From contig DATNQD010000007.1 in assembly GCA_036702865.1 (NCBI GenBank), positions 1-36,256 of the forward strand: a DNA stretch of 36,256 nucleotides, given 5' to 3'. The stretch comes from Trichocoleus sp. (GTDB lineage: Bacteria > Cyanobacteriota > Cyanobacteriia > Elainellales > Elainellaceae). Made by a program: the position numbers and the translations under genes. The notes beneath the pieces are model-generated. The model was not told where the DNA came from and made no database searches. It was given only the letters and a program-made list of their open reading frames with translations. Of this stretch, positions 5,357-26,372 are shown one piece after another (within the stretch, counting starts at the first letter, position 1; every line of letters begins with the position of its first letter).

Positions 5357-5374
5357 GGTTGGAGTTGCAGGGTT

Positions 5375-10061: not shown

Positions 10062-10062
10062 G

Positions 10063-13000
10063 ATGACAAACTCTGCTTCTTTCGATTCATTGCTTCCATC
10101 TCAGGGCAATACCAACCTTGAGCAATCAATTACAGGCGATCGCAATCAAACGATCGGTCAAGTTTTGGGCGGTATGGTCGTCTATGTCAGTGGTGGACAA
10201 GCGGTCTTCAATACAGGTAGGGATGAATCAGAGACTGATGCAAAACCTGCTTTCAGCATTGGGCCTAATCCTTATCGAGGGTTGATGGCATTTCAGGAAA
10301 CCGATGGCGATCGATTTTTTGGGCGAGAAAAACAAATTGTGGAGCTCTGGGCAAAACTACGTCAGTTGCACGAAACCGAATCTGCCATTCGATTGCTGCC
10401 CATCTATGGACCTTCCGGTTCAGGAAAGTCATCTCTGGCACGAGCAGGACTGATTCCGGAATTAGCTAGACGTCCTATTCCAGGATATGACCGAGCAAGA
10501 GTTGCTGTATTAGTGCCAGGAACTCATCCCTTAGAATCGCTAGCAACTGTCTTGGCGAGAATTGCCACCAACGACCTCATTCCTGTTACTAAAACTCGTG
10601 AGTTTGCGATGGAGCTAGCGCAGAAAACCCAGAGCAACCAGTATGACGGCTTGCGGCGCATTGCCAACGTACTGCCCGATATCACTATTTCTCCACTGAT
10701 TGTTCTAGTCGATCAGTTTGAGGAGGTGTATACCCTTTGCGAAAGCCAGGAGGAACGAGATGCCTTTATTGCTAATTTGCTTTGTGCCGTAAGCGATCGT
10801 GCTCGTCGAGTCTCTGTCATTATGACGCTACGGAGTGACTTCTTGGGCGAGACTCAAAAGCATCCAATATTGAATACGCTGTTTGCTGAACAAGGGTTTC
10901 TAGTGCGATCGATGAACGTAGACGAGTTGCGACAAGCGATTGCCAAACCTGCTGAGCTTGCGGGACATCCTCTAGACCAGGCAACAATCGATTTGCTAGT
11001 GAAGGACACGGAAGGACGAGAAGGAGCCTTACCCCTGCTTCAGTTTGCCCTTACTAGCATCTGGAAGGGATTAACGGAAGGGAAGGAACCTGCAGAGACG
11101 CTGAAAGCAATCGGAGGCGTAGGCGGCGCGCTAGCTGGGGAAGCTCAACGGGTTTATCAGCAGCTTAACGATGAAGAACAGGAGATCGCACGCAGGATTT
11201 TTCTGGGATTAGTGCAGTTGGGAGAAGGCACAAAAGATACTCGTCGTCGGGTTCGCTTCGACAGTTTAGTGTCGTATCAAAATCAGCCTGAGCAGGTGAA
11301 GCGGGTGATTGAGTTGTTTTCTGCTCCAGGTGCACGCTTGATTACTCTGGCTGCGATGGGCAACACAGAAACAGCAGAAGTGAGTCATGAAGCTCTTTTT
11401 GATCACTGGCAACAGCTTCAGACCTGGCTGGAGAGCAGCCGTAGTGATATTCGGTTTCAACGTCGCTTGGATGAAGCAGCGCGGTACTGGGATGAGCAGG
11501 GGCGTCCGGAAGGAAATCTGTGGCGGTCACCGGATTTAGATTTGCTGAAGCGATATCAACAGCGATCGGGTGATGACATGACGCCCTTACAGATGGCGTT
11601 TTTCGAAGCAGCTAAGGATACTGAAAACCATCGAAAGCAGAAAGAGCAGCAGCAGCACCGATTCCAGAGGTGGGCAATCCGGGGACTAACTATCCTCTCG
11701 ATAGGAGCGCTCGGTTTAGTTGGAATAGCACTGTACCAATTGCAAAGGTTACAACGGCAACGAGTAGAACAGTTGGCAACAACAGCAGCAGCCCTAGTAG
11801 CAACAAAGCCTGTGGAGGCAGAAATCAACGCGATCGCAGCAATTGGTCTAGGACAATCTACATTCGTCCACTTTCCCAACCATCCATTGCCTGTTGCTGC
11901 TTTCAATAGCTTGCTGAAAACAACCCAAGAGAATCGAGAGACAATAATTTTTCAGAGTGAGAGTCCAATCAGTTCTACTGCCGTTAGTCCTGATAGTAAG
12001 ACTGTTGCTATTGGTATGTGGGATAAAACTATTCGCCTGTTAGACATCAATACGGGAAAGCCTTTTGGGCTGCCCTTAAGTGGGCATAAACAGGGGGGAA
12101 TTTCAGTTGCCTTTAGCCCTGATGGTAAGCGAATTGTCAGTGGAAGTTATGACAATACGGTGCGCCTGTGGGATGTCAGAACGGGTAAGCCCATCGGGCA
12201 GCCTCTGCGTGGACATGGAGATGTAGTTACTTCAGTTGCTTTTAGCCCTGATGGCAAGCAAATTGCCAGTGGAAGTTATGACAATACGGTGCGCCTGTGG
12301 GATGTCAGAACGGGTAAGCCCATCGGGCAACCTTTACGTGGGCATGAAAAGCCCGTTACTTCAGTTGTTTTTAGTCCTGATAGCAAAATGATTGTCAGCG
12401 GCAGTCAGGATACAACTGTGCGCTTATGGAGTATTAGTACAGGTAAATCTATCAATCTGCCTATAGATAGCAATGAAAATGTAGAATCAGTTGCTTTCAG
12501 TCCTGATGGCAAGATGATTGCCAGTGGTAGTTGGGATAAAACTGTGCGCTTATGGGATACCAACACGGGCAAGCCTATCGGTCTGCCTTTCCGTGGACAT
12601 GAAGATGTAGTTACTTCGGTTGCTTTTAGTCCTGATAGCAAGATGATTGCCAGTGGCAGTTGGGATAAAACTGTGCGCTTATGGGATGTTCGTACTAGTA
12701 GTCCTATTGATCAACCTTTGCGCGGCTATGAGGATGCAATTTACTCAGTTGCTTTTAGTCCTGATGGCAGATTTATTGTTGGTAGCAGTTCTGGAGGTTT
12801 TCGCAGCCCTGGGACTATATATGTGTGGGATATCAGCACTAGCAAGTTCGTCGGTCAACCCTTGCATGGTCATGAAAGATGGGTTACTTCAGTTGCCTTC
12901 AGCCCTGATGGGAGGACGATTGCTAGCAGCAGCAGCGATGGGATTCGCTTGTGGGATGCTAGTGGCAATCCCATTGCTCACCCTCTGAATAAGCAAGACG

Positions 13001-13872
13001 TGAGGTTGGGCAACCCGGTTGTCTTCAATCCTAATAGTGAAACAGTTATTGGGGTTATTGGAGATGCATTACAACTATGGAGCCGCAAAACCAGTAAGCT
13101 GATTCGTCAAATTCCGCTTAAGCAAGGATACGGAATTAATCGAGCTGCCTTCAGTTTTGATGGTAAGACGATTGTTACTACTGAAGCATTTAGAACTTTA
13201 CGTTTATGGGACATCAGCACTGGTAAACCCATAGGCAAATCCTTGAACGTGCTACAGGGGGAATTTGTACAATCTTTCGCTGTCAGTTCTGATAGAAAGA
13301 TAATCATTGGTATGGAAGATGGATCATTACGCCTGTGGAATGTTGAAACGGGTAAACCTATTGGTCAACCTTTGCGAGGGCATGAAGATCCGGTTGGTGC
13401 AGTTGCTTTTAGTCGTGACGGCAAAATGATTGTCAGCGGTAGTTGGGATACAACTATACGCTTATGGGATGTCAAGACAGGTAAACCTATTGGTCAACCC
13501 CTACGAGGGCATGAGGGCTCGGTTGATGCAGTTGCTTTCAGCCCTGACGGTAAGACCGTTGCTAGTGGCAGTAATGACAATACAGTACGACTGTGGGATG
13601 CCAAGACAGGTGAGCCCATTGGTTACCCCCTACGAGGGCATGAGGGTTCGGTTAATGCAGTTGCTTTCAGCCCTGACAGTAAGACCGTTGCTAGTGGCGG
13701 TAATGACAATACAGTACGACTGTGGTCAATTGCTAGGATATCTTCCTGGCAAGGCTTGCTTCAGCTTAGCTGTGGAGAACTACGCTATCATCCTGCTTTA
13801 ATTGAGCCGAAAAATGATACTGCTAGGGAAGCCAAACGTAGCTGCCAACAATATGCCTGGAAGAACCAGTAA
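10063..13872 (+). CDS. nSTAND1-WD40 receptor with N-terminal amyloid-like motif
   Basis: A 1269-residue protein. Motif GDRNQTIGQVLGGMVVYVS at 25-43. Then the standard nSTAND1 entry NPYRGLMAFQETDGDRFFGRE (69-89), P-loop YGPSGSGKSSLARAGL (115-130) and Walker B LIVLVDQFEEVYT (212-224). A helical region runs to about 530. One membrane helix is likely at about 536-557 (GLTILSIGALGLVGIAL). From about 635 to 1225 I count 14 WD40 repeats, enough for two seven-bladed propellers, with several almost identical (GSYDNTVRLWDVRTGKPIG occurs twice in succession). Two middle repeats are degenerate. The protein ends with the W..LL..SCGEL.YHPAL tail common in these proteins. The ATG lies one base after the previous stop, with an AAGGGAG ribosome-binding site inside the upstream gene, so translation is coupled to the NACHT gene. 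Role: ATP-switched sensor with a WD40 recognition surface; the ligand is unknown. Confidence 0.9.
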   Translation: MTNSASFDSLLPSQGNTNLEQSITGDRNQTIGQVLGGMVVYVSGGQAVFNTGRDESETDAKPAFSIGPNPYRGLMAFQETDGDRFFGREKQIVELWAKLRQLHETESAIRLLPIYGPSGSGKSSLARAGLIPELARRPIPGYDRARVAVLVPGTHPLESLATVLARIATNDLIPVTKTREFAMELAQKTQSNQYDGLRRIANVLPDITISPLIVLVDQFEEVYTLCESQEERDAFIANLLCAVSDRARRVSVIMTLRSDFLGETQKHPILNTLFAEQGFLVRSMNVDELRQAIAKPAELAGHPLDQATIDLLVKDTEGREGALPLLQFALTSIWKGLTEGKEPAETLKAIGGVGGALAGEAQRVYQQLNDEEQEIARRIFLGLVQLGEGTKDTRRRVRFDSLVSYQNQPEQVKRVIELFSAPGARLITLAAMGNTETAEVSHEALFDHWQQLQTWLESSRSDIRFQRRLDEAARYWDEQGRPEGNLWRSPDLDLLKRYQQRSGDDMTPLQMAFFEAAKDTENHRKQKEQQQHRFQRWAIRGLTILSIGALGLVGIALYQLQRLQRQRVEQLATTAAALVATKPVEAEINAIAAIGLGQSTFVHFPNHPLPVAAFNSLLKTTQENRETIIFQSESPISSTAVSPDSKTVAIGMWDKTIRLLDINTGKPFGLPLSGHKQGGISVAFSPDGKRIVSGSYDNTVRLWDVRTGKPIGQPLRGHGDVVTSVAFSPDGKQIASGSYDNTVRLWDVRTGKPIGQPLRGHEKPVTSVVFSPDSKMIVSGSQDTTVRLWSISTGKSINLPIDSNENVESVAFSPDGKMIASGSWDKTVRLWDTNTGKPIGLPFRGHEDVVTSVAFSPDSKMIASGSWDKTVRLWDVRTSSPIDQPLRGYEDAIYSVAFSPDGRFIVGSSSGGFRSPGTIYVWDISTSKFVGQPLHGHERWVTSVAFSPDGRTIASSSSDGIRLWDASGNPIAHPLNKQDVRLGNPVVFNPNSETVIGVIGDALQLWSRKTSKLIRQIPLKQGYGINRAAFSFDGKTIVTTEAFRTLRLWDISTGKPIGKSLNVLQGEFVQSFAVSSDRKIIIGMEDGSLRLWNVETGKPIGQPLRGHEDPVGAVAFSRDGKMIVSGSWDTTIRLWDVKTGKPIGQPLRGHEGSVDAVAFSPDGKTVASGSNDNTVRLWDAKTGEPIGYPLRGHEGSVNAVAFSPDSKTVASGGNDNTVRLWSIARISSWQGLLQLSCGELRYHPALIEPKNDTAREAKRSCQQYAWKNQ

Positions 13873-13880
13873 AGCCAAGT

Positions 13881-16800
13881 ATGATGTGGTTAGCCAGACA
13901 ATTTAACTGCTTGCTGCATTGGCTATGTCGTCTACTCAGTCGCAAACATAGGCTACATTCACACCTACCAGCCCCCAAGGTTAAAACTCGTATTCAGCAA
14001 AGCAGTGAGGGCGATCGTAACCAAATAATTGGACAGCAATATGGTGGAATGGCGATCGCCAATCTCGAACAACACCTTCATCTGTCCCCTCAGGAAATCC
14101 TCTCCCTTGAAAGCTTCTGGCAAAACTGGTCATTTGAAACAGTCCCACTACTCAGTCCAAGTTTAGTAGTTGATGGGCGCGAGCAAGCACTCGATCGCAT
14201 TATTAGCTGGCTGCGGGGTAGCCCTAGTCCCCTCTCATTACAGGCTAACTCTCCAGAGGAGGCGATTGCCTTCTTAGCAGCCGTTATTCAAAGCTTAGAT
14301 GAGGAGGAACGTACCACAGTTTTGTCACGTGCGATTGTTGTTGATGGGGCTACTGCATGGCAAAGCTTGATTACATCATCTGACCCACTTATTTTGATTC
14401 CACGATTGGCTCAACCAGAAGGAACTGGACGAGCAGTTAACAATGGACATCATGTTTTTATTCCATTAGGGCGATCAGGGGCGAATGATGAATCTGTTTT
14501 ACCTCGAATTGTTCGGGATGCAGCAGAGCAAGCACTCAAAGAAATGGGGCTGAGTTCCGATCGAGCACGTCATCTTGCAACTCTGGCTCGACGTAGCTTG
14601 TCTGCGCTTCGGCGTAAACTAGCGATCGCTCGCAACATTCAACAACCAGAATGGGCACAGCCTAACAATGCGCGCGCATTGTTAGCTCCCCTACTTGCAA
14701 GTGCTTGGCACGATTCCTGTCTAGGCGATCGAGATGCCTTAGCGCAATTAGCAGGGATGTCTTACGAACATCTTCAAACGATTCTCGTTCGTTGGGCGAA
14801 TGAACCTAATCCGCCAGTTCGACGCGTGGGAGATATTTGGATGATCACAGCGCAAGAAGACGTTTGGCGGTTGATCGCGCGTTATCTCACGAATGATGAC
14901 CTACAGCGCTTCGAGAATGTTGCGATCGGTGTTTTGAGCGAATTGGATCCAGCTTTTGAACTTCCACCCGAACAACGTTACGCAGCAAGTATTTATGGGA
15001 AAGTCCTCACTCGGTCAGGACGCCTTCGTGAAAGTATTGCAGAAACGATCGCACTGATGGCAACCCTGAGTCCTGAAATCTCATTTACAGCAAACAGGGT
15101 AGGTGAAGATGTTGCTCACAGAATCGTTTGGCAATTGATGGAAAAGGTAAAGAATAACGAAACGCTTTGGGCATCGCTAGCCTATCAACTCCCTCTCCTA
15201 GCTGAGGCAGCACCCGGAATTTTCTTGGAAGCAGTAGATGCAGGATTGACTGGAGAAAATCCAATCTTAGTCAACCTATTTCAAGACCAAGCTTCAAAGG
15301 CAGCATTTATGAGTTCTTCTCCCCATACAGGATTGCTTTGGGCACTAGAAACGCTTGCTTGGCATCCTGACTACTTAAGCCATTCAGCTTTGAGTTTGGC
15401 GCGTCTGACACATCTAGATCCAGATGGTCGTCTTGCGAATCGACCAGCCGCGAGCCTGCGAGATATCTTTATTTGTTGGCGTCCCAATACAACAGCATCT
15501 CTTAGAAACCGCCTCAATGTTCTCGATATAATCCGTAGACGAGAACCAGAAGTTTCTTGGCATCTGTTGATGAAACTTCTGCCAAAACAGCACAGCACAG
15601 TTTCCTCAACCCACGGAACCAAATGGCGTGACTGGGTACCTGATCCTTGTCTAAAAATTACGACTCAGGAATACTGTGAGGCTACAAACGCTATTCTGCA
15701 TCGACTTCTTGCTGATGCAGGCATGAATCCAACTCGTTGGTGTAGCCTCATTGCTGCAATTGCTGGAATGTTGAATGAACAGCAAGAATCATTGCTTCGA
15801 CACTTGGAAATGCTTGATCCTCAGCAATTTTCCTCGCAAGAGCGGACTAAAATTTGTGATTGTCTTCGTTATGAGACCACACGGCATCGAGACTTTCCAG
15901 ATGCACGTTGGGCAATGCCTGCTGAACATGTTCAACGCCTAGAAGAGAGCTACGCTCGTTTTGAACCAGATAATCTGATCGATCGGCACTGTTGGTTCTT
16001 CAAACGTGGTGTGGCATTACCAGGAATGCGGGGTAGACCTTGGGAGGAGCGAGCAAAGATAGTTGACGATTTACGAGTGGCAGCACTGCAGGAAATTCTC
16101 GTGGCACAAAACTGGGATGGAGTTTTGAAGCTAGCAGAACAGTCCGAAGAGCCAGTGTTAGTTGGTGAAACTCTAGCAAAAGCAGAATTGCTACCGATCG
16201 ATTTAGGTCGATTTCTTGAAGATAATCTTGGGGCTTCAACAGTATGGCGCAGTCAAATGGCTCAGAGGTTTGTTGCAATTAATGCCCATAAACAGGGAGA
16301 GCCGTGGATTGACGCTTGTTTGAACGCCAATTTAAGAAGATGGAAACTAGGACAGTACGGAGAATTTCTGCTCTGCCTTCCGTTCAACAGATCTCTACTG
16401 GATCGACTCGACACAGCGAATGAAGAGGCTCAACACTACTTCTGGAGCCGTACACAAACTGTCAGTCTCTTGGAAACTGCTCAAGCAGAGCGCGTGCTTA
16501 CGCAACTGCTCAAATTCCACAGACCCCATTTTGCGGTCGATATTCTCGAGGAGGACATTGATCAAACCACTAGAATCCTATCACCTGAACAAATTGCTGA
16601 AGTTTTGGAGGTATCTGTTCAAACACCTCCAGGTTCGGATTTTGATGCATCAGACTTTGCCTATCGTTCTGCTGAGTTACTAAACTATCTTGAGAAGACA
16701 GAGATACCACGTGATCGCCTTGCCCAATTAGAGTTGCTGTATCTCCGAATTCACGAGCATTATCGACGTCCTCATGTACTTCACGAAGAGTTATCCACAA

Positions 16801-17375
16801 GTCCAACCCTCTTTGTTGAAGCACTCCAGTACATCTTTCGTTCAGAGAATGAGCCTTCAGAGGGGAAATCTACTGAAGCTGAAGCATTTGCACTGCTAGC
16901 ACTGGATTTTTTGGAGTCATGGAGACAGATGCCCGGAGTCCGGGAAGATGGCTCAGTTGATACTGAAGCGCTTCGAGCATGGGTGATGCGTGTAAGGGAA
17001 CTTGCTGTAGAGTTTGGTCGAACTGAAGTAGCCGATATTTACATCGGTCATGCACTCGCCTTCTCCCCGATCGATCCAGACGGGCTTTGGCCACATCAAG
17101 CTGTACGGGAAATCATTGAGGATCTAGCTAATCCGGTGATTGAGGATGGTTGGCAAACTCAAATTTCTAACAATCGTGGCGTTACTACCCGGATGCTGAC
17201 AGAGGGCGGCGAGCAAGAACGCATGCTTGTGGAGCGGTATCAAAAGGATGCAAAACAAATGAATGACCGATGGCCACGAACGGCAGCAGTTCTCCGAGAG
17301 ATAGCAGAAAGCTATCGTCGTGGCGCAATAGAACAGGATCAGCGTGCAGAACTAGTACAAGACTTCTGGCGGTAG
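13881..17375 (+). CDS. Large P-loop-less protein with N-terminal amyloid-like motif, unknown function
   Basis: An 1164-residue protein I cannot place in a named family. The first 23 residues are hydrophobic and basic (MMWLARQFNCLLHWLCRLLS), possibly a membrane anchor. Motif GDRNQIIGQQYGGMAIANL at 44-62. No GxxxxGK[ST] P-loop occurs anywhere. Residues about 95-220 have strand-helix alternation and contain AIVVDGATAW...LILIPRL, which could be a dead NTPase core where a Walker A would sit (SPLSLQANSPEEAIAF). The rest is helical and leucine-rich, perhaps an alpha-solenoid. The last 110 residues have a well-conserved look: SPIDPDGLWPHQAVREIIE, NNRGVTTRMLTEGGEQERML, and WPRTAAVLREIAESY. It starts 8 bases after the WD40 gene and closes the operon. 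By motif and position it belongs to the same signalling set, as a sensor that lost ATPase activity or as an unrecognised effector (inference). Confidence 0.75.
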   Translation: MMWLARQFNCLLHWLCRLLSRKHRLHSHLPAPKVKTRIQQSSEGDRNQIIGQQYGGMAIANLEQHLHLSPQEILSLESFWQNWSFETVPLLSPSLVVDGREQALDRIISWLRGSPSPLSLQANSPEEAIAFLAAVIQSLDEEERTTVLSRAIVVDGATAWQSLITSSDPLILIPRLAQPEGTGRAVNNGHHVFIPLGRSGANDESVLPRIVRDAAEQALKEMGLSSDRARHLATLARRSLSALRRKLAIARNIQQPEWAQPNNARALLAPLLASAWHDSCLGDRDALAQLAGMSYEHLQTILVRWANEPNPPVRRVGDIWMITAQEDVWRLIARYLTNDDLQRFENVAIGVLSELDPAFELPPEQRYAASIYGKVLTRSGRLRESIAETIALMATLSPEISFTANRVGEDVAHRIVWQLMEKVKNNETLWASLAYQLPLLAEAAPGIFLEAVDAGLTGENPILVNLFQDQASKAAFMSSSPHTGLLWALETLAWHPDYLSHSALSLARLTHLDPDGRLANRPAASLRDIFICWRPNTTASLRNRLNVLDIIRRREPEVSWHLLMKLLPKQHSTVSSTHGTKWRDWVPDPCLKITTQEYCEATNAILHRLLADAGMNPTRWCSLIAAIAGMLNEQQESLLRHLEMLDPQQFSSQERTKICDCLRYETTRHRDFPDARWAMPAEHVQRLEESYARFEPDNLIDRHCWFFKRGVALPGMRGRPWEERAKIVDDLRVAALQEILVAQNWDGVLKLAEQSEEPVLVGETLAKAELLPIDLGRFLEDNLGASTVWRSQMAQRFVAINAHKQGEPWIDACLNANLRRWKLGQYGEFLLCLPFNRSLLDRLDTANEEAQHYFWSRTQTVSLLETAQAERVLTQLLKFHRPHFAVDILEEDIDQTTRILSPEQIAEVLEVSVQTPPGSDFDASDFAYRSAELLNYLEKTEIPRDRLAQLELLYLRIHEHYRRPHVLHEELSTSPTLFVEALQYIFRSENEPSEGKSTEAEAFALLALDFLESWRQMPGVREDGSVDTEALRAWVMRVRELAVEFGRTEVADIYIGHALAFSPIDPDGLWPHQAVREIIEDLANPVIEDGWQTQISNNRGVTTRMLTEGGEQERMLVERYQKDAKQMNDRWPRTAAVLREIAESYRRGAIEQDQRAELVQDFWR

Positions 17376-17403: not shown

Positions 17404-19167
17404 CTAAACCCCTTTCAGGGCTGATTGCAGAATCCGTTGATTTAATGCCAGGACAGGTTGTAACTTAGCCTGTTGTTCTTGTTGGTTATAGGTTCGAGAT
17501 TGCATGTACCGGCTATGGTGCATCCAGGCAGCAGCAGCTTCTAATTCAGTTTCAGTAGCTCCAAGATTTTTCAGGTGAGTTATATACATCTTTCTAAACT
17601 CTTTTGGAGTTACAGGTACTCCCGTAAATCTCATGAAGATAGTCCGGATATACTGAGCCAAGCTGTTAGCTACAAAAGGACGCCCATCCTGTTGAGTGAA
17701 GAAGCGATCGTGTTGAGGATTGAGATAAGCACGTTCTTCTTGTAACCAGCGAGCAATATACTCGTAAAACGTCTTGCCATCTGGAAATTGAGTGTTAGGC
17801 ACTTCACCCCACCATTCTCCATACGTTTTTCCAGTTTTGTAATCATTGGGCCTCAAGTGGATATACCAACGGGCTTGTAGGGGATCTTGCATCCGTTCAA
17901 TTGGAATAAATGTAGCCATGTGAAAGATCCCTTGCTTCAAAGTCTTGCCGACTTCCAGCTCCTGGTAAGTTCTTGAGCGATCGGGAGGCATTAACGTCAT
18001 GAAGCCAACCACGAGAAATTTGTGGAGGCTGGTTGCAATAGATTTTGGAAGTCGCCGACGCTTCATAAAGCTATTACGACGTTTATCCTCATAAAACATA
18101 GAAATTAGGTCTGCTTCTACACGCAGTTTCTCTAAAACTTCTAATGCTTGAATCCAAGGCACGCTTTTTGTTTCATAAGAGACACTTGGCGCAACATTTT
18201 TAGAAATCTCTCCAACTTCACGCCATCGTTTTCGAAGACGTTGAATGACAGGAATATCTTCGTAGTTAGCAAACTCCTCAGAATCAGTTTCTTTCCGATA
18301 AACATACTTAGCAACACTAAGCATTGCATCCATAATTTGGTGATGTGTCTTAGGATGACAATTTAGGAAAGTAACGTATTCATCACAAAGTTGAACAACA
18401 TCAACAGCAAGATCTTTCGCTTCTTCCCGAGCCATTGCTTTCGCAACCCAATATTGGTTCATATCTATTTGTCCGGCTTCATCTCTAAAATCACGTAATC
18501 TGAGTTTGAGCTGAACAAAGGGGATAATCGACTGTAGACTGAGAGAGTCTAAAGGAAAACTCTTATATTGGTGTAACCAACCTAAGATACACAGAATGTA
18601 TCGAAGATTCTTTTTTACAGTTGCCTCCCTAACAGTAAGATTTTTCGTACAGAATTCACTGTAAGTATCTATTTCTGCCTGCAATTTCTTGTTAATAAAG
18701 TCGTCTTTCCGGGAGCCAAGAGTGTGAGGAGACGCAATTTTTCTATCAGTTAATCGCTTCTTATATTGCCTTCGTTGACCTCGAGGGCTAGAGAAGCGGT
18801 GAAGATTGGGTCTTTCATCAATTGGTTGTTGCCCGATCCAACCTCTCTTGGCTGCCCAATCAATTATTTTCTTAAGATAACAACGTGGACCGCGTCGTCT
18901 AGCTTTTGATATTCCCATCCGGTCAAAAACTTGATTTTGAACAGCTAACGCATTTTCAAGTTCTGATAATGGCACCTTCTCTAAAAATCTTAGTCCCTCA
19001 GCTACTGCTGCAGCAGTAGCTTTCCTTCCAGATGGAATAGGTCCACCCCATCCTCCTACGGTAAAGCGAATAAGTGCTGTTTGGGTCAAAGCATACTCTG
19101 CTTCCTTTCCCGTATCCTTCGAATATTGTTTGTAGAATTCCAATACTTCAGCAACAGTTTCAGGCAT
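17404..19167 (-). CDS. Large tyrosine-recombinase/integrase-like protein
   Basis: A 587-residue protein with a long N-terminal half (1-380) and a C-terminal half carrying the tyrosine recombinase pattern. An Arg-I candidate is in MPPDRSRTYQELEV (R397 or R399), a beta-hairpin lysine in NDYKTGKT (K444 or K447), a KxxR box (TPKEFRKMYITHL, K522/R525, with lysine where histidine is usual), H550-H551 in AAWMHHSRY, and nucleophile candidate Y560 in SRTYNQQ. These enzymes cut and rejoin DNA through a phosphotyrosine. The length is well above the usual 300-400 residues, and the extra N-terminal part may be a DNA-binding region specific to this subfamily. GAGGAG lies about 8 bases before the ATG. The gene is convergent with the receptor operon (28-bp gap) and is more AT-rich than its neighbours, which fits separate acquisition. 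Catalytic residues are inferred by eye. Confidence 0.72.
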   Translation of the reverse strand: MPETVAEVLEFYKQYSKDTGKEAEYALTQTALIRFTVGGWGGPIPSGRKATAAAVAEGLRFLEKVPLSELENALAVQNQVFDRMGISKARRRGPRCYLKKIIDWAAKRGWIGQQPIDERPNLHRFSSPRGQRRQYKKRLTDRKIASPHTLGSRKDDFINKKLQAEIDTYSEFCTKNLTVREATVKKNLRYILCILGWLHQYKSFPLDSLSLQSIIPFVQLKLRLRDFRDEAGQIDMNQYWVAKAMAREEAKDLAVDVVQLCDEYVTFLNCHPKTHHQIMDAMLSVAKYVYRKETDSEEFANYEDIPVIQRLRKRWREVGEISKNVAPSVSYETKSVPWIQALEVLEKLRVEADLISMFYEDKRRNSFMKRRRLPKSIATSLHKFLVVGFMTLMPPDRSRTYQELEVGKTLKQGIFHMATFIPIERMQDPLQARWYIHLRPNDYKTGKTYGEWWGEVPNTQFPDGKTFYEYIARWLQEERAYLNPQHDRFFTQQDGRPFVANSLAQYIRTIFMRFTGVPVTPKEFRKMYITHLKNLGATETELEAAAAWMHHSRYMQSRTYNQQEQQAKLQPVLALNQRILQSALKGV

Positions 19168-19596
19168 TCTAAATTCTCCTCGTTCACTGAGGTAATCGAT
19201 TTAGTTTTGTCTTAATAACTAGACATAAGTAGAGCAAATACTGTCAGTTTTTTACTGATTTCTAATTATATAACCTTTTCAATCTTATTTAAATATCCAC
19301 GCCGAAAGGCTACATAATTAAATTCAGAAATCAAGCCTATTATTTAGCTTTTCAAACCCCTCAATAGATAGGCTTTCAAGAAATTGGTTAAAATCAGATG
19401 TTCTAAATAACTGTTCTAAATATTTAGAACAGCATTTTTATGTCTTGATTTGTCGTATTAACTAAGTTTATAAGTAACAATTAGTTGAGCTATTTGAAGC
19501 AGCTACGCTGAAAATAATTGTGGACAAGAAATAAAATTCAGTCTGTTTTTTAGTTAATATGACAGAGCTATAGCATTTCTAATATTGCTTTTCCCT
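19168..19596. other. 429-bp AT-rich divergent intergenic region
   Basis: This region lies between the recombinase start (leftward) and the RHH gene start (rightward). It is markedly AT-rich. It contains the 22-bp palindrome listed separately and an 8-bp inverted repeat AAGCCTAT (19333-19340) / ATAGGCTT (19368-19375) with a 27-base spacer. No coding frame on either strand looks real. It is a plausible place for promoters of both genes and for a recombination site. Confidence 0.6.
19399..19432. promoter_or_regulatory. Perfect 22-bp palindrome plus direct half-site, likely operator or recombinase core site
   Basis: Positions 19411-19432 form a perfect palindrome with half CTGTTCTAAAT. Another copy of the half, TGTTCTAAATA, lies at 19399-19409, 13 bp before the same string at 19412-19422. 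Spaced repeats like this are typical operators for ribbon-helix-helix dimers, and such a protein is encoded 165 bases to the right. A tyrosine recombinase crossover site, with inverted arms around a short core, is the other reading, since the recombinase gene is divergent on the left. Confidence 0.6.
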
Positions 19597-19812
19597 ATGA
19601 AGCGTAGAGCAGCAAAACGTCCTACCTGGATGAAGAAGAGAGAGCATAAAGGACAGAAGTGTATCCGAGGTATCCCTGTCAATGAATACAGAGAGTTGAA
19701 AAAGAAGATTACGTTTAGTCTAACACCAGCAGCAATCGACAAGTTAGATGCTTTAGCAGAAAAACAAGAGGTTTCTAGAAGCGAGATATTGGAGAGGTTG
19801 TTAAGACAATAA
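19597..19812 (+). CDS. Small ribbon-helix-helix DNA-binding protein
   Basis: A 71-residue protein with a very basic N-terminus (MKRRAAKRPTWMKKREHKGQK). The C-terminal half has the RHH pattern: strand KITFSLT (about 38-44), helix AAIDKLDALAEKQ, turn, and VSRSEILERLLRQ. The S-R-S-E-I-L-E-R-L-L second helix matches plasmid CopG-like regulators. An in-frame TTG four codons earlier is possible, but ATG at 19597 is more likely; neither has a good ribosome-binding site. It is divergent from the recombinase gene with the 22-bp palindrome between them, so it may repress the recombinase or act as an accessory factor for it (inference). Confidence 0.72.
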   Translation: MKRRAAKRPTWMKKREHKGQKCIRGIPVNEYRELKKKITFSLTPAAIDKLDALAEKQEVSRSEILERLLRQ

Positions 19813-20293: not shown

Positions 20294-21091
20294 TCACACG
20301 TCTATCTGTTTTAACCTTGATCTCGCAACGAGGCTTTCAAACTGAGAACAAACTCCCTTTGCCACTACTGCATCTGCTAATAGTAAGCCTGCCTCAATAT
20401 TGCGCTCATGTGCTGCTTCTGTGAAGTTGGCAGATGTTATCAAAACACGTTCCTCGTCTACTACCACACATTTCGCATGTAGACATGCCTTCGTTTCTGT
20501 GCTCTTCTCTAATGACCGTGGGTCGTAAAACACTTCTGGTAAACGGTTTCCAACCCAAATATCCTTACGGAAGGTCACTGCGAACCGTTTTAGCAAGACT
20601 GTTTCTGGTTCGTCATTACTGTAAGGGCGCTGAACGTTTAGAAACATTCGTACTCGTAGCAATGGATTTATATCCATACGGCTTGCTAGTCCTTCAAAAA
20701 GGGCACGTGCCTTCTCACCCCGATCGATCGCAAAACTGGAAATTAGTACACTATGTTTTGCCGTGTTAAAAAGCTCACGGACAACAACTGCTGTGTCACG
20801 GCTTAAGGAACCAGCAATTCCCTGTCCTGTCCAAACTAATTCGACCCGATCGCGCACTTGTTGAGCCGTAACCCGTTCTGCTGCCAGCAGGTTTAAGGTA
20901 TAGGCAATGTGGGCAGGCAATGCTCCCAGGATATTTAGGCGATTCAGCTCGTCTGCAACATCTCGGCATAGCCCTTTTGGAATGAGGCTTTCGAGGGTAG
21001 GAACCAAGTAGGGCGGGTGTAGCCTTCCAGCTTCAAGCGCAGCAGCAAGTCCTTCTAGAGCAGGTCGGCTTAGCTTAAGGAAGGGTGACAT
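20294..21091 (-). CDS. drmC: DISARM protein DrmC, phospholipase D-like nuclease
   Basis: A 265-residue PLD-superfamily protein, the last gene of a class 1 DISARM set. The HKD signature is clear: H205-x-K207-x4-D212 in CLHAKCVVVDEERVLITSANFTEAAHERN, with the downstream S220, N222 and E233 of the family. The first half is helical and contains a second conserved stretch, HSVLISSFAID (113-123), where a degenerate first PLD motif would be. Only one HKD motif is present, so it would work as a dimer, as other single-motif PLD nucleases do. In published DISARM work drmC is the most dispensable component. Its ATG overlaps the drmB stop by one base (TGATG), so the two are translationally coupled. Confidence 0.88.
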   Translation of the reverse strand: MSPFLKLSRPALEGLAAALEAGRLHPPYLVPTLESLIPKGLCRDVADELNRLNILGALPAHIAYTLNLLAAERVTAQQVRDRVELVWTGQGIAGSLSRDTAVVVRELFNTAKHSVLISSFAIDRGEKARALFEGLASRMDINPLLRVRMFLNVQRPYSNDEPETVLLKRFAVTFRKDIWVGNRLPEVFYDPRSLEKSTETKACLHAKCVVVDEERVLITSANFTEAAHERNIEAGLLLADAVVAKGVCSQFESLVARSRLKQIDV

Positions 21092-22950
21092 CAGAGCCCT
21101 CCCATATCAAAAAATTCTGCCCCTAAACCTTCAACTGTATCTATTACAAGTGCTCGATCGAGAAATTCATTGCGGCGTTCGCAGGAAGGTTCTGCAATCA
21201 GTAAACAACCGTGGCAGGCAGCACCATGCAAGAACCGATCCTCCTGTGGGTTGTTAGGCTGATGCTGGGCACAAACGGGATCATTGGAGCAGAGCTTGCC
21301 CATCTCTAAGGCATTCATCAGGTGATACTCAATTCGTTTACCCACTTGAACTAAGCCCCCCAGCGTTCCCTCAGAGCCAGAAGTACCCGTGTAAAGCAAA
21401 ATGCCATAGCCGGATTCCCCAGTGTAAATTCGCTCTCGAACAGCACTGGCGGCATAGCCGCATTCCAATGAAACTGCTGTGATTAGCAGGTGCGACAGTG
21501 AGTGCAGCATGATGTATGGCAAACCAGGAAACTTGGCTTTATCTGGGTCAAGCCCTCGTTGATTGCGCCATTCGTCAAAACCTTTGTAGAGAGTTCGACC
21601 TCGTTTTTGTACGGCATCTCGTTTGAGCCAGCTCTCGATCGCTTCTTTTTTGAACGAGATGAAGATCCCTTCCCCTTTATTTTCAACCGCAGGTACCCAG
21701 GCTGGTTCGATATCTAGCGCAGCACGGCGCACATCTAGCGACAACTCTCCATCAATATCTGGCATTGCTGCCTCAAAGCGAGTGAAGCCAATTTGAGCGA
21801 CGACCTCCCGCAACCGATGAACCAGGACAATACGATCGATCCGAGCAGACAGGAGCGGACTGAGCCCATCTAACTGGCGAGTTCGAGCGTAGAAGTCACC
21901 CTCTGGTACGTCTTCACCCACTTCATCTGGCTGGGAAAGAAGGGTTTCAATTTCAACCTGTTTAATACTCTTTGGCTTATCTGATGAACCAGTTTGACGG
22001 CGTTTAACCTCTGCCCAGATAGCTTCATCGCTGAAACCTTCGATCGCAATTGCCACCTTTTGTTTTTTACGATCGCGTTTAACATCACTGATGTCTTCAG
22101 CAAATTGCAAATAATCCTCGTAAACTAAATCAACCGCTTTCCGTAGCGCTTCATCAGAGTCTGGTAATGAAATGACACTTAGAACCTGAGCGAAGTAAGC
22201 GTTACTGGCAGAGCGCACGAGCAGGCGGTTATTTTCCGGTTTGCCAGTGGTTGGAGAAATACAAAGTTCCTGCGCCGCAGGTCCAATCCAGGGACGATGA
22301 CCTTTACAAGAATCAAGAACTCTTCCATTTGGGACAGTCGCATCAGAGAGGGGGCGACGTGCTTTACAAGCTTCGCAGCGAACAAAGATATCCACGAAAT
22401 CATTTCCTGAGCCCCCTTCATCCAGCCAAAGTTGCCCCCGACAGTTCTTGTTTGGGCTATCGCTATGCACGAAGCGATACCAATCGATATCACTGATATG
22501 TCCATTAACGCAAGCTTGGACAAAGCGTACCGGAACTACAGGAACCTTCTTCCTTTCCAAAGTCAGGTACTTTCCCTTGACCAAGCTACCCCAAGGCAGA
22601 AGTGGCCGAGTACGATATTTTCGTTCATCAGGAGTTTTCCAAATCTCCTCAACCTGCGCCAAAAACCAAGTTGGGAATACAAAAGATGTGATGCCGCTAC
22701 GAGTTGCTTTGGGGTCTTGTTCGTCTACAGGTGGGGCATACATGGCAATCTGCTTCACTCCCAGTAGTTCACAGACCCGCCCTGCCAAACGATCTTCGTA
22801 AATGCGGCGGCGATCGCCCTTCCAGTGGTTCAGTCCCCCAATTAATACAGAATGCTTGGGCAAATCCACCATCGCTCCGGGTCCAAAGGTGGAAATTACC
22901 TGACTTTGACGAATTTCTCCAGAGGGCGGTCGTTTATTCTTTGCTTTCAT
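21091..22950 (-). CDS. drmB: DISARM protein DrmB (DUF1998, zinc-binding)
   Basis: A 619-residue protein. It opens with SGEIRQSQVISTFGPGAMVDLP (about 9-30), a hallmark of DrmB. The C-terminal DUF1998 region has GYGILLYTGTSGSEGTLGGLV followed by a cysteine cluster, C554, C560, C579, C582 and C590, likely a zinc site. A second cysteine set lies in the middle (CVNGH, NCRG, RCEACK). DrmB works in a complex with the helicase DrmA; this pair is the core of every DISARM system and blocks incoming unmodified phage DNA. Its start codon overlaps the drmA stop by one base (TAATG). Length is normal for the family and I see no broken motif. Confidence 0.9.
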   Translation of the reverse strand: MKAKNKRPPSGEIRQSQVISTFGPGAMVDLPKHSVLIGGLNHWKGDRRRIYEDRLAGRVCELLGVKQIAMYAPPVDEQDPKATRSGITSFVFPTWFLAQVEEIWKTPDERKYRTRPLLPWGSLVKGKYLTLERKKVPVVPVRFVQACVNGHISDIDWYRFVHSDSPNKNCRGQLWLDEGGSGNDFVDIFVRCEACKARRPLSDATVPNGRVLDSCKGHRPWIGPAAQELCISPTTGKPENNRLLVRSASNAYFAQVLSVISLPDSDEALRKAVDLVYEDYLQFAEDISDVKRDRKKQKVAIAIEGFSDEAIWAEVKRRQTGSSDKPKSIKQVEIETLLSQPDEVGEDVPEGDFYARTRQLDGLSPLLSARIDRIVLVHRLREVVAQIGFTRFEAAMPDIDGELSLDVRRAALDIEPAWVPAVENKGEGIFISFKKEAIESWLKRDAVQKRGRTLYKGFDEWRNQRGLDPDKAKFPGLPYIMLHSLSHLLITAVSLECGYAASAVRERIYTGESGYGILLYTGTSGSEGTLGGLVQVGKRIEYHLMNALEMGKLCSNDPVCAQHQPNNPQEDRFLHGAACHGCLLIAEPSCERRNEFLDRALVIDTVEGLGAEFFDMGGL

Positions 22951-25900
22951 TATTCGTCTTCCTCAATCTCAAAACCATCAGGATTTCGGACCCACAGATT
23001 CACTGTTCGCTCTACATCCCGCAGACTGCGTTGCGCTTTGAATTTGCGGGCTTCTAAAGGTTGACGCTCTAGCTCAGGATCAAGAGGGTCAAACAACAGC
23101 GGTGGGGCTTGTCCAACTTCCTGCTGATACTGGAGCATGATCTTCTGGCTGGCAATATGCTCCCAAGTATCCAAGAGGTTGATAACTCGTCCTTTTACCT
23201 TCTGGCGTAGCTCATCAGCATCTTTATCATCGAGTTCTTTGTCGTGCATTTCGGCTCGATTAGCAATTACATCGGCAATCCGTTCTAGATCCTTGCGGTA
23301 TTGCAGAATGTCGATCGCCCGAATGGGGGCGGTCATCCGACGATCGCCTAATCTTGCCAGGGCAACCGTAATCGCAGCAATGCCTCGATCAATGGCGCGT
23401 GGTGAAAACGGTGTGACGCTGGTAGCTTCCACTGCCCGGTAGAAGGTGGTATGCCATGCCTGGAAGCGTTCGTAGTGGGAACGATCGCGGGGACGATGAA
23501 CATTGAGAAGCGTAATCACTAAGCCAGGGCGATTCTCATCCCGCCCCACTCGGCTGGTCGCCTGAATATACTCAGCCGCCGTTTTGGGTTGCCCTAACAC
23601 CACCATTAAACCTAAGCGAGTGATATCTAGACCTACCGAGATCATGTTGGTTGCCAGGGTAACATCGACGTGTTCTTTATCCTGAAACGGTAGGGCTAAA
23701 CGACGTTTGGTATCGGCAACTTCGTTGGTGCTGACACGGGAAGTTAACTCTAGGGGCAAATCACTGATCTTGCGATCGGTGAAGGAACCCTCTTCTTCTC
23801 TAATTCGCTTATGTTGGCTGTATTGGGTCAATCGGGCATTTACCTCATCTTCCACAATGCGTCGGCTCCCGCCCAGTTCGCGCAAGGAGTTGAAGTAGCC
23901 TAACAGCGTCATATAGGGATCAGCGGGATTATTGGGATTTTCGCTACCGCCAGCCAGTTCCCAATCTTTTTGAGCAGCACCTAGCAATGCGAGATAAGTT
24001 CGTAGCAGCACTACCTTTAAACTGCGTCCCTGAGCGGCAATACCGACATACGTACGAGCGTGTTTTTCTGTGGCAGGGACAGTTTTGGCAAAGAAAGAAT
24101 CACGGCGATCGGGACCAGGTGGCGGAAATACATCTACGGCATCTCGACCAAATAGGGCACGAATCTGTTTCGTTGCTCGTCGAACCGTTGCAGTAGACGC
24201 CACGATTTTGGGGCGAATTCGTTTTCCATTTCCGTCTTGAGTAGACAGAGCATCAATAGCGGTTTCGTACAGCCCAACCATTGTGCCGAGTGGTCCTGAA
24301 ATTAGATGTAGCTCGTCTTGGATGATCAGGTCTGGTGGAGGCAGGGGTTGACCGAGTGGCTGCCCACGGCCAGCTTTGCAAGGACCATAAAAGCCATCTT
24401 TGTCGTAGCGTTCGACTTTGCCAAATAGTCCGCCTGTTTCACCTACCCAAGGCAGGCTGGCGAACTTATCTACTGTAGCGATGATGAAGCAGGGTAGCCG
24501 CCGATAGATTTGATCATCTACTGCCAGAATGGGAAGCGGTTGATTTCCTGTGAAGGAACATTGAGGTTTTCCGTCCGATCGCTTCTTACGATTGATACAA
24601 GCTATCCGAAGTTCATCTGGTTCGTCTGGGCTAGGCAACAGTTGGAAGGAGTTGCGGGTGAAGCGGGCACCGCACCAAGGGCAGTTTTCTAGTGGAATTG
24701 GAGATGGCTTCTGTTTGTCGTTATTTTGGTAGGCGATTGTTCTTGCCCGTGCGCTGTTTTCGTCGCCATCACCTTTTTTACCCAGTTTGTTTGGGGTTGC
24801 TGCCTGACCTACCCATAGCCCAATCTCAAACGGGTGCTTTCCTAATTTCTCAATGTCGTTTTGTCGCTCCAGTTCAAGGGCACAGATGAGGGTAGCTGCT
24901 CGCCCAAGTTGGTCCAAAGTGAGTAGCCGCAGTGTGTAGCGCATCAAGACACTTAGACCTGCTGAATGGATGCCAGGGTGACGTAGCCGCCGTAGCACCA
25001 GAGTAAAGGCAGCCAATCCCAGATATGCCTCGGTTTTACCACCGCCCGTCGGGAAGAAGAGGAGGTCTACCAGTTCTCGATCGCCCTGTTCTGGGTTAGC
25101 GATACCCACAATGTTCATTAGCAAAAATGCTAACTGGAAGGGTCGCCACTGCGGAGCAGACAAAGATTCTGGTGTAACTCCTTCTTTGTCGTGGGTCAGT
25201 CGTTGACGAATGGCTGTGGCAACAGCACGGTTAGCAATGCAGAATGCTTCAAACACCTGCGGGTCGTTCATCGCTTGCAGTCCAGCCGAAATCCGCTGAT
25301 TGGCAATGATGGCTCGATCCAGCAAACTACTTGCTGTTTCCGATCGATGTTGGGGGCTGCTTGGCGCTTTGGCTCGTTGTTCTACAATCCATTCTGCGTA
25401 TGCATCAATCATTGGATGCAACAAGTCGCGCAGTGCAGCAGGCGTTGGAGCAGCAGCAAGGCTCTCCATACTCAACTCAACGTTAGGAACTTTAGCTGGG
25501 ATAACTTTTTCGACATCTGCGGTCGGCGTCCAGGCAGTCCAGACTTTTTGACAAACGCCACCAGGTTCTACCAGCGCAATTGCCGAAACATTGTGCCCCA
25601 CTGCAAACTCGTAATCGTCTCGGTATTGCAGGTCTGCAACTCGCTCATCCCAGTCTTCCCCATTGCTGCCGCGCAAATCGGGACGGGGGACAAAGGAATC
25701 TTCTGTTTGAATTACCAGCTTAGTTTGAAAAGCATGGGCAGCATCGGGGGTTTTATAGGGAGCGGGACGACGCTGGTTAACCAGAAAGATAGAAACGGAG
25801 CGTGTACCTGGTGGAACCAACTCTTCTGAAGTCACTGGGCGGGCAGAGACCATTAACTTCAGTCCCTTGCTATCTGGAATATCGAATTCCACTGGAGTTT

Positions 25901-26372
25901 CGCTAATTTGAATGGGAATCGTAAGTTCTGCGTGGCGAGGAATGCGTTGCCAAGTTCCAACTCTCAGCGTGCTTTTAGATTCTTCTTCGGATTGGTCAGT
26001 GATGAATGGCTTATAGTCGCCCCAACAAACTGTGACATGGAGAGAGTCTGTGTGAGCAGCTAGTAACAGGCTCATCCCCATTGAGGAAGGGAACAAACCT
26101 TTGCGGGCAGAAGATTTATCAGGAATCGCTTCATCGTCACCTGCTCCAGAGCGGCTGACGGCATCTAGTTCATCGTCACCTGTATCATCAGATCGTACGT
26201 TCATTGGGGCATCGTAGGGCACCAAGAACCCGGTGAGATACCATTTGGAAGGCGGTTGGGGAATCATTTCTTCCGCGTGAGCCAGATCGTCGGGGGTGGG
26301 TCCCACTAAATCCAGTTGCAGCGCATCGATGAGGTGAGTGCGAACCTCAGCAGCAGCAGTAGTAGACGACAT
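22950..26372 (-). CDS. drmA: DISARM protein DrmA, SF2 helicase
   Basis: An 1140-residue helicase. An N-terminal domain of about 400 residues has no named fold that I can see. The SF2 core follows: P-loop PTGGGKT (441-447); motif II as DELH (686-689, in DLIIQDELHLISGPLG) instead of DEAH; motif III STAT; motif V ATNMISVGLDI; and motif VI QATSRVGR (937-944). Cysteines C564, C567, C592 and C605 between motifs I and II suggest a zinc-stabilised insertion. DrmA loads on DNA and, with DrmB, provides the restriction activity. The ATG at 26372 has no strong ribosome-binding site and follows the Uma2 gene by 138 bases, so it may have its own start signals. Confidence 0.9.
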   Translation of the reverse strand: MSSTTAAAEVRTHLIDALQLDLVGPTPDDLAHAEEMIPQPPSKWYLTGFLVPYDAPMNVRSDDTGDDELDAVSRSGAGDDEAIPDKSSARKGLFPSSMGMSLLLAAHTDSLHVTVCWGDYKPFITDQSEEESKSTLRVGTWQRIPRHAELTIPIQISETPVEFDIPDSKGLKLMVSARPVTSEELVPPGTRSVSIFLVNQRRPAPYKTPDAAHAFQTKLVIQTEDSFVPRPDLRGSNGEDWDERVADLQYRDDYEFAVGHNVSAIALVEPGGVCQKVWTAWTPTADVEKVIPAKVPNVELSMESLAAAPTPAALRDLLHPMIDAYAEWIVEQRAKAPSSPQHRSETASSLLDRAIIANQRISAGLQAMNDPQVFEAFCIANRAVATAIRQRLTHDKEGVTPESLSAPQWRPFQLAFLLMNIVGIANPEQGDRELVDLLFFPTGGGKTEAYLGLAAFTLVLRRLRHPGIHSAGLSVLMRYTLRLLTLDQLGRAATLICALELERQNDIEKLGKHPFEIGLWVGQAATPNKLGKKGDGDENSARARTIAYQNNDKQKPSPIPLENCPWCGARFTRNSFQLLPSPDEPDELRIACINRKKRSDGKPQCSFTGNQPLPILAVDDQIYRRLPCFIIATVDKFASLPWVGETGGLFGKVERYDKDGFYGPCKAGRGQPLGQPLPPPDLIIQDELHLISGPLGTMVGLYETAIDALSTQDGNGKRIRPKIVASTATVRRATKQIRALFGRDAVDVFPPPGPDRRDSFFAKTVPATEKHARTYVGIAAQGRSLKVVLLRTYLALLGAAQKDWELAGGSENPNNPADPYMTLLGYFNSLRELGGSRRIVEDEVNARLTQYSQHKRIREEEGSFTDRKISDLPLELTSRVSTNEVADTKRRLALPFQDKEHVDVTLATNMISVGLDITRLGLMVVLGQPKTAAEYIQATSRVGRDENRPGLVITLLNVHRPRDRSHYERFQAWHTTFYRAVEATSVTPFSPRAIDRGIAAITVALARLGDRRMTAPIRAIDILQYRKDLERIADVIANRAEMHDKELDDKDADELRQKVKGRVINLLDTWEHIASQKIMLQYQQEVGQAPPLLFDPLDPELERQPLEARKFKAQRSLRDVERTVNLWVRNPDGFEIEEDE

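What the first reader, a model, noticed from the sequence alone, without database searches (positions are those of the whole stretch)
17404..19812. Oversized recombinase, 22-bp palindrome and RHH protein form a possible mobile module between two defence systems
The recombinase is about 200 residues longer than common integrases, has lysine in place of the first histidine of the HxxR box, and is divergent from an RHH gene. Between them lies a perfect palindrome with an additional half-site. The AT-rich base composition contrasts with both flanking systems. It may have brought in one of them, or it could invert or excise DNA here.
Basis: partly seen in the sequence, partly recalled or inferred. 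Interest (0 to 1): 0.5.

Follow-up and report, generated by a model that had tools for sequence, protein, structure and literature searches.

The report
Plasmid-type recombinase module on defence island
A cyanobacterial DNA island carrying anti-virus systems contains an unusual DNA-recombining enzyme, a small DNA-binding partner and a shared control region of a kind otherwise found mainly on cyanobacterial plasmids; it probably maintains the element rather than having inserted the defence genes.

Summary
A 587-aa tyrosine recombinase (R397-K444-K522xxR525-H551-Y560) lies divergent from an RHH gene across a 429-bp AT-rich gap holding a perfect 22-bp palindrome and a third half-site. The palindrome alone is only mildly unusual, but the same three-half-site array sits at a similar distance and the same orientation beside the relative on Anabaena plasmid pANACY.05. 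Relatives (20 plasmid records, no phage record) form a cyanobacterial, largely plasmid-borne family without a Pfam or NCBIfam match; an RHH gene is linked to 37 of 65 copies. The enzyme is Cre/Xer-like plus an extra N-terminal helical domain. Lysine for histidine occurs in 7 of 38 members and is known from SSV integrases. A 43-bp copy of a tRNA-Val 3' end (window 1422-1464) matches a tRNA-Val on another contig, flanked by an integrase-like gene and a CyRepA1 plasmid-replication gene. So the window is most likely part of an integrated plasmid-like element whose integrase is another gene. I read the module as a plasmid-type recombination system acting on its own control region, most likely for maintenance or multimer resolution. 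That function is inferred. Nothing found supports this recombinase having brought in DISARM or the STAND genes.

The parts
17404..19167 (-). Long tyrosine recombinase, 587 aa: extra N-terminal helical domain (1-107), low-confidence linker (about 110-158), core-binding-like domain (160-290), catalytic domain (306-587)
19597..19812 (+). RHH (CopG-type) protein, 71 aa (or 75 aa from TTG 19585), divergent from the recombinase
19168..19596 (.). 429-bp AT-rich gap (29% GC) between the two genes; where an upstream RHH gene was found in the 65 copies counted, the gap is 312-662 bp
19411..19432 (.). Perfect 22-bp palindrome (two inverted half-sites)
   Evidence: counterpart in pANACY.05
19399..19409 (+). 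Third half-site TGTTCTAAATA
19208..19221 (-). Repeat TAGTTAWTANGACA, copy next to the recombinase start
   Evidence: the only exact copies in the genome are the three listed here; weak match to the relatives' motif
19451..19464 (-). Repeat TAGTTAWTANGACA, middle copy
19551..19564 (+). Repeat TAGTTAWTANGACA, copy next to the RHH start, inverted
1422..1464 (-). 43-bp copy of the 3' end of tRNA-Val(TAC), att-like; identical to C80:19907-19949 at the intact tRNA-Val gene
1324..1421 (.). Flank resembling the stretch between tRNA-Val and the integrase-like gene on C80 (local score 51; maximum of 300 shuffles 25; four relatives' tRNA-Val flanks 15-21)
2080..17375 (+). STAND-type cluster: NB-ARC-TPR (2080-4728), 150-aa ORF (4904-5356), NB-ARC-TPR (5375-8053), NACHT (8106-10061), nSTAND1-WD40 (10063-13872), 1164-aa unknown (13881-17375)
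20294..35144 (-). DISARM genes: DrmC 20294-21091, DrmB 21091-22950, DrmA 22950-26372, DrmMI 27775-31884, DrmD 31881-35144 (class 1 by recalled definition), with a Uma2-like gene and a 162-aa ORF between

Best explanation
The module is a plasmid-type site-specific recombination unit: a long tyrosine recombinase with an additional N-terminal helical, DNA-binding-like domain, an RHH protein, and a cis-acting region of about 430 bp between them with several repeated half-sites. It rides on an integrated plasmid-like element (tRNA-Val att copy; separate 363-aa integrase-like gene and CyRepA1 replication gene on contig C80) that also carries DISARM and a STAND cluster. Most likely mechanism: the RHH protein binds the gap, controls both promoters and helps build a complex; the recombinase binds the repeats through its core-binding and N-terminal domains and recombines two copies of the same region on sister or multimeric element molecules, keeping the element monomeric and stable. 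Shown: the enzyme's predicted fold and catalytic residues, RHH linkage in over half of the copies, plasmid association, the shared three-half-site array in one relative, and the tRNA-Val duplication. Inferred: which protein binds which repeat, that strand exchange occurs there, multimer resolution as the purpose, and that C80 and C7 are two ends of one element.
For: Catalytic set kept across the family (of 38: R397 36, K444 34, R525 38, H551 30, Y560 35). Cre/Xer fold. 20 of 72,556 plasmid records, 0 of 50,697 phage records. In genomes of 10 contigs or fewer (G613, G490, G638, G042, G145) the long-ORF copies lie on contigs of 29-151 kb, while the two copies on 6.2-6.4 Mb contigs are fragments with stops. 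RHH linked in 37 of 65 copies, 28 of 54 outside the loci that seeded the profile; in 29 loci over 8 kb (542 kb) 1 of 16 RHH hits is unlinked, counting the pANACY.05 partner as linked across the record ends. Same three-half-site array and orientation in pANACY.05, 255 against 265 bp upstream. A motif from four relatives recurs in other gaps: 7 of 31 relatives' gaps at p<0.05, combined p 0.0003. The cis-region is intact in the window although the same contig carries an att copy, and on the 1.57-Mb contig G170:C2. The 14-mer repeat has no exact copy elsewhere in the genome.
Against: No recombination junctions or reads were available. The window's own repeats match the relatives' motif only weakly (p 0.083 and 0.166; 0.096, 0.082 and 0.046; in a scan of the whole window the best gap site ranks only sixth). 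The palindrome array is shared with one relative only. 28 of 65 copies show no linked RHH at the threshold used. In 7 of 14 plasmid records read, another annotated tyrosine recombinase is present in the stretch shown and could be the resolvase. Repeat orientation differs among relatives (inverted in L106 and L070, direct in L101), which fits operators as well as crossover sites. A published survey says that Oscillatoriophycideae lack Xer but have a separate 'Cyan' recombinase subgroup instead (PMC8138268, passage), so a need for plasmid-borne resolution is not established.
Confidence: 0.48

Rival explanations
1. The long recombinase is an integrase/excisionase with the RHH protein as directionality factor and the gap as attP; it moves the island or one of the defence systems.
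For: Layout resembles int-xis-attP with multiple arm-like repeats. The family sits on mobile replicons. The other module copy in this genome (contig C4) also lies on a contig with a tRNA 3' fragment. The 363-aa neighbour of the intact tRNA-Val is only a sub-threshold match to Phage_integrase (20.4 bits, cut-off 27.1).
Against: The att-like copy in the window is a tRNA-Val end about 16 kb from the recombinase gene, and a separate integrase-like gene sits next to the intact tRNA-Val. The gap is not visibly split. No exact repeat copy outside the gap. DrmA, DrmB, DrmC and DrmMI have no match in 28 relative loci.
Confidence: 0.2
2. The repeats and palindrome are operators only (RHH or recombinase autoregulation); the recombinase acts elsewhere, on a site not recognised here.
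For: One repeat lies next to the RHH start and one next to the recombinase start. A divergent pair with operators between is a common regulatory layout (general knowledge). Repeat orientation is not constant among relatives.
Against: The gap keeps several hundred bases even in same-strand arrangements, longer than simple operators need; repeats at mid-gap recur in some relatives.
Confidence: 0.22
3. A protelomerase-like enzyme that resolves the palindrome into hairpin ends.
For: Large tyrosine recombinase, lysine in the HxxR box and a 22-bp palindrome beside the gene; protelomerases share such features (recalled).
Against: No telomere-resolvase family among Pfam matches up to E 10. 12 of the 14 plasmid records read are circular; of the other two, pANACY.05 has its RHH gene at one record end and the recombinase at the other, which suggests a circle. 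Only the window and pANACY.05 have the palindrome array. Lysine is the minority state.
Confidence: 0.02
4. An inactive leftover of an integrated plasmid.
For: The element is probably integrated; contig C4 of the same genome holds a broken copy; two copies on large contigs of other genomes are broken.
Against: The window copy is full-length with all catalytic residues, an intact RHH ORF and an intact repeat array.
Confidence: 0.08

Closest known systems
Cre/loxP and XerH/difH (simple tyrosine recombinases)
   Same: Core-binding plus catalytic fold over residues 158-580 (XerH 5jjv_B Z 15.8, rmsd 4.1, 290 aligned; Cre 1f44_A Z 15.7, rmsd 4.0, 294 aligned); complete catalytic set
   Different: Extra N-terminal helical domain and linker of about 158 residues; lysine in the HxxR box; RHH partner; 13% (XerH) and 9% (Cre) identity in these two alignments
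TnpI-IRS of Tn4430 (recalled; the two papers listed were not read)
   Same: Recombinase gene next to a site that combines inverted core repeats with further copies
   Different: TnpI is much shorter and belongs to a Tn3-type transposon (recalled); no sequence relation was tested
SSV-type archaeal integrases
   Same: R...KxxR...Y signature (PMC8371274, passage)
   Different: The lysine is sporadic here (7 of 38); cyanobacterial plasmid family; not compared by sequence
Arm-binding (complex) tyrosine recombinases such as lambda and Tn1549 Int
   Same: An additional N-terminal domain before the core-binding domain (the simple/complex distinction: PMC8138268, passage); several repeats in the site
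   Different: The extra domain is all-helical and weakly resembles integrase N-terminal or core-binding domains (2khv Z 6.1; Tn1549 Int residues 81-170 Z 5.5), not the beta-rich arm-binding fold (recalled)
CyRepA1 cyanobacterial plasmids
   Same: The C80 end of the element carries a CyRepA1 protein (NF042913, 461.2 bits, cut-off 200); plasmid pGM3709_07, which holds a relative, carries an annotated CyRepA1
   Different: Here the element appears integrated at tRNA-Val
'Cyan' subgroup of simple tyrosine recombinases (PMC8138268, passage)
   Same: Cyanobacterial tyrosine recombinases
   Different: Described there as simple (core-binding plus catalytic); relation to this family was not tested

Membership tests
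Tyrosine recombinase superfamily | Catalytic R-K-(H/K)xxR-(H/W)-Y set | tested here: met
Tyrosine recombinase superfamily | Core-binding plus catalytic fold | tested here: met
   (predicted structure)
Tyrosine recombinase superfamily | Recognition by a curated sequence model (helpful, not defining) | tested here: inconclusive
   PHROG_1 integrase at 4.5e-07; 0 Pfam families at E 0.001, only DUF4096 at E 0.25 up to E 10; 0 NCBIfam families up to E 10
Multimer-resolution system (Cre/lox, TnpI/IRS type) | Recombinase gene adjacent to a cis region with inverted and direct repeats | tested here: met
   plasmid association
Multimer-resolution system (Cre/lox, TnpI/IRS type) | Recombination between two copies of the site, multimers to monomers | not testable with these tools
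   needs reads or bench work
Telomere resolvase (protelomerase) | Sequence family membership | tested here: inconclusive
   no such family in Pfam matches up to E 10; the presence of the model in the library was not checked
Telomere resolvase (protelomerase) | Linear replicon with hairpin ends | tested here: inconclusive
   12 of 14 relative plasmid records circular; topology of the window's element unknown
Integrase of the tRNA-Val island | Gene beside the att site | tested here: not met
   recombinase gene about 16 kb from the att copy; a 363-aa integrase-like gene (Phage_integrase 20.4 bits, below the cut-off of 27.1) lies next to the intact tRNA-Val
DISARM class 1 (right flank) | drmD, drmMI, drmA, drmB, drmC together (definition recalled) | tested here: met

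The most novel reading that the evidence does not exclude
An undescribed plasmid-maintenance recombination system of cyanobacteria: an RHH-controlled recombinase with two tandem core-binding-like domains acting on a multi-half-site region, doing for these replicons what Xer/dif-type resolution does elsewhere, with a subgroup in which the enzyme is encoded by two overlapping genes (DNA-binding and catalytic parts apart).
Probability: 0.25. Interest if true: 0.6.

Novelty: new variant of a known kind. Interest (0 to 1): 0.4.

Why it matters
It gives a testable role and a testable cis site to a recurrent family on cyanobacterial plasmids that the searched libraries do not name. It shows that the window is most likely an integrated plasmid-like defence island with its own, separate tRNA-targeting integrase-like gene. 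If the resolution reading is right, it would help explain how plasmids are kept monomeric in cyanobacteria, some of which are reported to lack Xer (PMC8138268, passage), and would offer a new recombinase/site pair for cyanobacterial genetics.

Tried and rejected
Rejected or weak: (1) the palindrome as evidence by itself. (2) One shared motif in every gap: of 32 gaps not used for training (the window among them; 7 near-duplicates dropped before the count) 7 reach p<0.05 for the best site, and the window itself p 0.083; without the window and one further near-duplicate 7 of 30, combined p 0.0004. Three-copy 13-mers score above the highest of 20 shuffles in 9 of 43 gaps, near-duplicates included; pANACY.05 scores 0 in that test. 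(3) A second palindrome in the genome: no exact second copy; 7 places with up to 3 mismatches against 3 for the reversed control. (4) A contig that closes on itself: no end overlap. (5) An empty site in relatives: a tRNA-Val lies beside DUF2227 in 10 of 13 relative loci scanned, of 26 found, but in five neighbourhoods read the other flank does not match window 1-1430; DUF5996 lies near a tRNA-Val in 1 of 24 relative loci scanned. (6) The recombinase as a CyRepX replication protein: CyRepX is described as helicase-like (PMC10899382, passages). (7) Relatives in phages and viral contigs: none. (8) The palindrome as a terminator: it scores as terminator-like on the + strand, but it lies upstream of the RHH gene on that strand. 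(9) Solved relatives by sequence: none meaningful. Protelomerase structures were not among the 50 rows shown; that is no exclusion. Papers: passages only of PMC8371274, PMC10899382 and PMC8138268; listings only for the other papers (empty). In these searches I saw no paper describing this family.
Full report
What is there. The window is one whole 36,256-bp contig (C7) of a 5.93-Mb draft genome of 90 contigs. The recombinase's named relatives are cyanobacterial. The finding's features are real: a 587-aa ORF on the minus strand at 17404-19167, a divergent RHH gene at 19597-19812, and between them a 429-bp gap of 29% GC with a perfect 22-bp palindrome at 19411-19432 and a third half-site at 19399-19409. 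A second repeat, TAGTTAWTANGACA, occurs in the gap three times (19208-, 19451-, 19551+); these are its only exact copies in the genome, with 8 further one-mismatch copies, against 30 matches of the reversed control at up to one mismatch. That pattern was written from these three copies, so the count shows absence elsewhere, not enrichment. The flanks are a DrmD-DrmMI-DrmA-DrmB-DrmC set on the right and a STAND-type cluster on the left.

Is it more than chance. The palindrome alone is weak evidence: arm 11 or more in 3 of 2000 shuffles of the gap and 1 of 100 of the window, and a longer perfect palindrome exists elsewhere in the window. The strong evidence is comparative. In the best-scoring plasmid relative, Anabaena cylindrica pANACY.05 (recombinase 36.2% identical over 94%), the same order of two inverted half-sites plus a third direct one, GTTCTAnnnATTTAGAACnnTTATTTAGAAC, lies 255 bp upstream of the recombinase ORF, against 265 bp in the window, in the same orientation. 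No other locus then in hand has it, apart from re-fetched copies of the window.

The enzyme. No Pfam family matches at E 0.001 (one irrelevant match at 0.25), no NCBIfam family up to E 10; PHROG_1 (integrase) matches at 4.5e-07. A model built with 38 family members has mean pLDDT 91.3. Residues 158-580 match XerH and Cre (5jjv_B Z 15.8, rmsd 4.1, 290 aligned; 1f44_A Z 15.7, rmsd 4.0, 294 aligned). The extra length is an N-terminal helical domain (pLDDT 95.1 when folded alone) and a low-confidence linker. The domain's best structural neighbours include 2khv (Z 6.1, rmsd 2.9, 88 aligned), the Tn1549 integrase residues 81-170 (Z 5.5, rmsd 3.3, 86 aligned) and a prophage integrase N-terminal domain (3lys, Z 5.0), with MRG-type domains at Z 4.9-5.7 among them. 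Foldseek gave nothing at E 0.001 for it, so 'second core-binding-like domain' is a weak assignment. Over 38 aligned members: R397 36, K444 34, R525 38, H551 30, Y560 35; position 522 is H in 23 and K in 7, with other residues in 8. The lysine is therefore a sporadic variant; KxxR is known from SSV-type integrases (PMC8371274, passage).

The family. tblastn finds relatives in 20 of 72,556 plasmid records, all with cyanobacterial names, and in 0 of 50,697 phage records; two scans of viral contigs found none. In whole genomes, the window's own counted where sampled: 6 of 386 from the phylum at E 1e-8, 10 of 36 in the order by profile at 1e-15, 17 of 291 and 11 of 42 in two orders chosen around earlier hits, at 1e-40. 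Of 53 places whose contig length I read, 3 lie on contigs over 1 Mb; two of these are fragments with stops (G638:C1, G042:C1) and one is intact (G170:C2). Draft contigs are short anyway, so the genomes of 10 contigs or fewer matter most: G613, G490, G638, G042 and G145 carry their long-ORF copies on contigs of 29-151 kb; some of these are the plasmids again. Of 14 plasmid records read, several only in part, 12 are circular, 7 show a second annotated tyrosine recombinase, and at least 4 show annotated restriction-modification genes. In 28 longer relative loci DrmA, DrmB, DrmC, DrmMI and the 1164-aa protein have no match; DrmD matches in 2, NACHT in 3 and nSTAND1-WD40 in 1.

The partner and the cis region. 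A profile from 11 module RHH proteins finds an RHH gene within 700 bp upstream or 100 bp downstream in 37 of 65 distinct copies (ORF of 450 aa or more, at least 700 bp of upstream DNA or, for pANACY.05, counted across the record ends; 3 of 68 such ORFs were dropped for lack of upstream DNA), or 28 of 54 without the seed loci. Many scanned loci are only about 5 kb, so the background must be read on the longer ones: in 29 loci over 8 kb (541,903 bp) there are 16 RHH hits, of which one is unlinked, the pANACY.05 partner being linked across the record ends. The upstream gap, where present, is 312-662 bp, in both divergent and same-strand arrangements. Repeats in the gaps differ by lineage: GTYTATACGC-type in L011 and related ones in L015, TATCCAACTTTTA in L089 and L076. 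A motif from four relatives was tested on 32 gaps not used to build it: 7 have p<0.05 for the best site and 8 for the second-best; combined p 0.0002 and 0.0006; the window itself 0.083 and 0.166. Without the window and one near-duplicate it is 7 of 30, combined p 0.0004 and 0.002.

The wider setting. Reading beyond the given coordinates, I found the 3' end of a tRNA-Val(TAC) without its 5' part at 1422-1464, 43 bp identical to a stretch at an intact tRNA-Val on contig C80; a 32-base stretch of it occurs exactly twice in the genome with up to 3 mismatches allowed. On C80 the side next to the tRNA 3' end holds a 363-aa integrase-like gene (Phage_integrase 20.4 bits, below the cut-off of 27.1; no NCBIfam match at 0.01; a tyrosine-recombinase-like C-terminal motif by eye), then a CyRepA1-family plasmid replication protein (461.2 bits, cut-off 200) and an FtsK-like protein (30.5 bits, cut-off 24) (coordinates). 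The other side holds DUF2227, whose neighbourhood with tRNA-Val is kept in the order (10 of 13 relative loci scanned, of 26 found). The 98 bp left of the copy in the window also resemble the tRNA-integrase spacer of C80, so the junction looks like two element ends meeting (tandem elements or a free circle), not simply an element end against chromosome. In the versions that I considered, window DNA right of 1464 is element DNA. No empty site was found, and contigs C7 and C80 were not joined.

How it most likely works. The cis region is intact although the contig bears an integration-type scar elsewhere, so it is probably not the integrative att site. Its exact repeats have no copy elsewhere in the genome, so recombination, if any, would be between copies of the region itself, as in multimer resolution. 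Oscillatoriophycideae are reported to lack Xer, but to have a separate 'Cyan' subgroup of recombinases instead (PMC8138268, passage); whether this genome belongs there was not determined, so the need for plasmid-borne resolution is an open point. The presence of a second recombinase on half of the plasmids read and the variable repeat orientation are the main further points against it.

Verdict. It belongs to a conserved, largely plasmid-borne cyanobacterial recombinase family with an RHH partner, inside what is most likely an integrated plasmid-like defence island. It is a new variant of a known kind, of moderate interest.

Noticed in passing
L059 6936-9225, L080 794-2913, L103 642-2931, L108 651-2415; L013 4322-5146: In several relatives the recombinase is split into an N-terminal ORF (233-295 aa) and an overlapping catalytic ORF, at about the same place in L059, L103, L108 and L013 (in L013 most of the catalytic part is missing). 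This could be a split-gene subgroup or programmed frameshifting.
   Followed up: partly
G000 contig C4 (L013): Second, broken RHH plus recombinase module in the same genome; the contig also holds a 42-bp tRNA-Thr 3' fragment (C4:167-208) identical to a stretch at an intact tRNA-Thr on C67.
   Followed up: partly
L228 2545-3036 (G000 contig C67): The C-terminal part of a Cas12k (NF038191, 204.5 bits, cut-off 150) lies about 1 kb from that tRNA-Thr, suggesting a type V-K CRISPR-associated transposon there.
   Followed up: no
L057 2367-6145, L058 7599-11356: Two tandem long recombinases followed by an RHH gene, in two copies within one genome.
   Followed up: no
window 13881-17375: 1164-aa protein with no Pfam, NCBIfam or PADLOC match at the end of the STAND cluster.
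   Followed up: no
window 26511-27098 and 27238-27726: A Uma2-like gene (PADLOC PDC-S03, 268.1 bits) and a 162-aa ORF without a Pfam or PADLOC match sit between drmA and drmMI.
   Followed up: no
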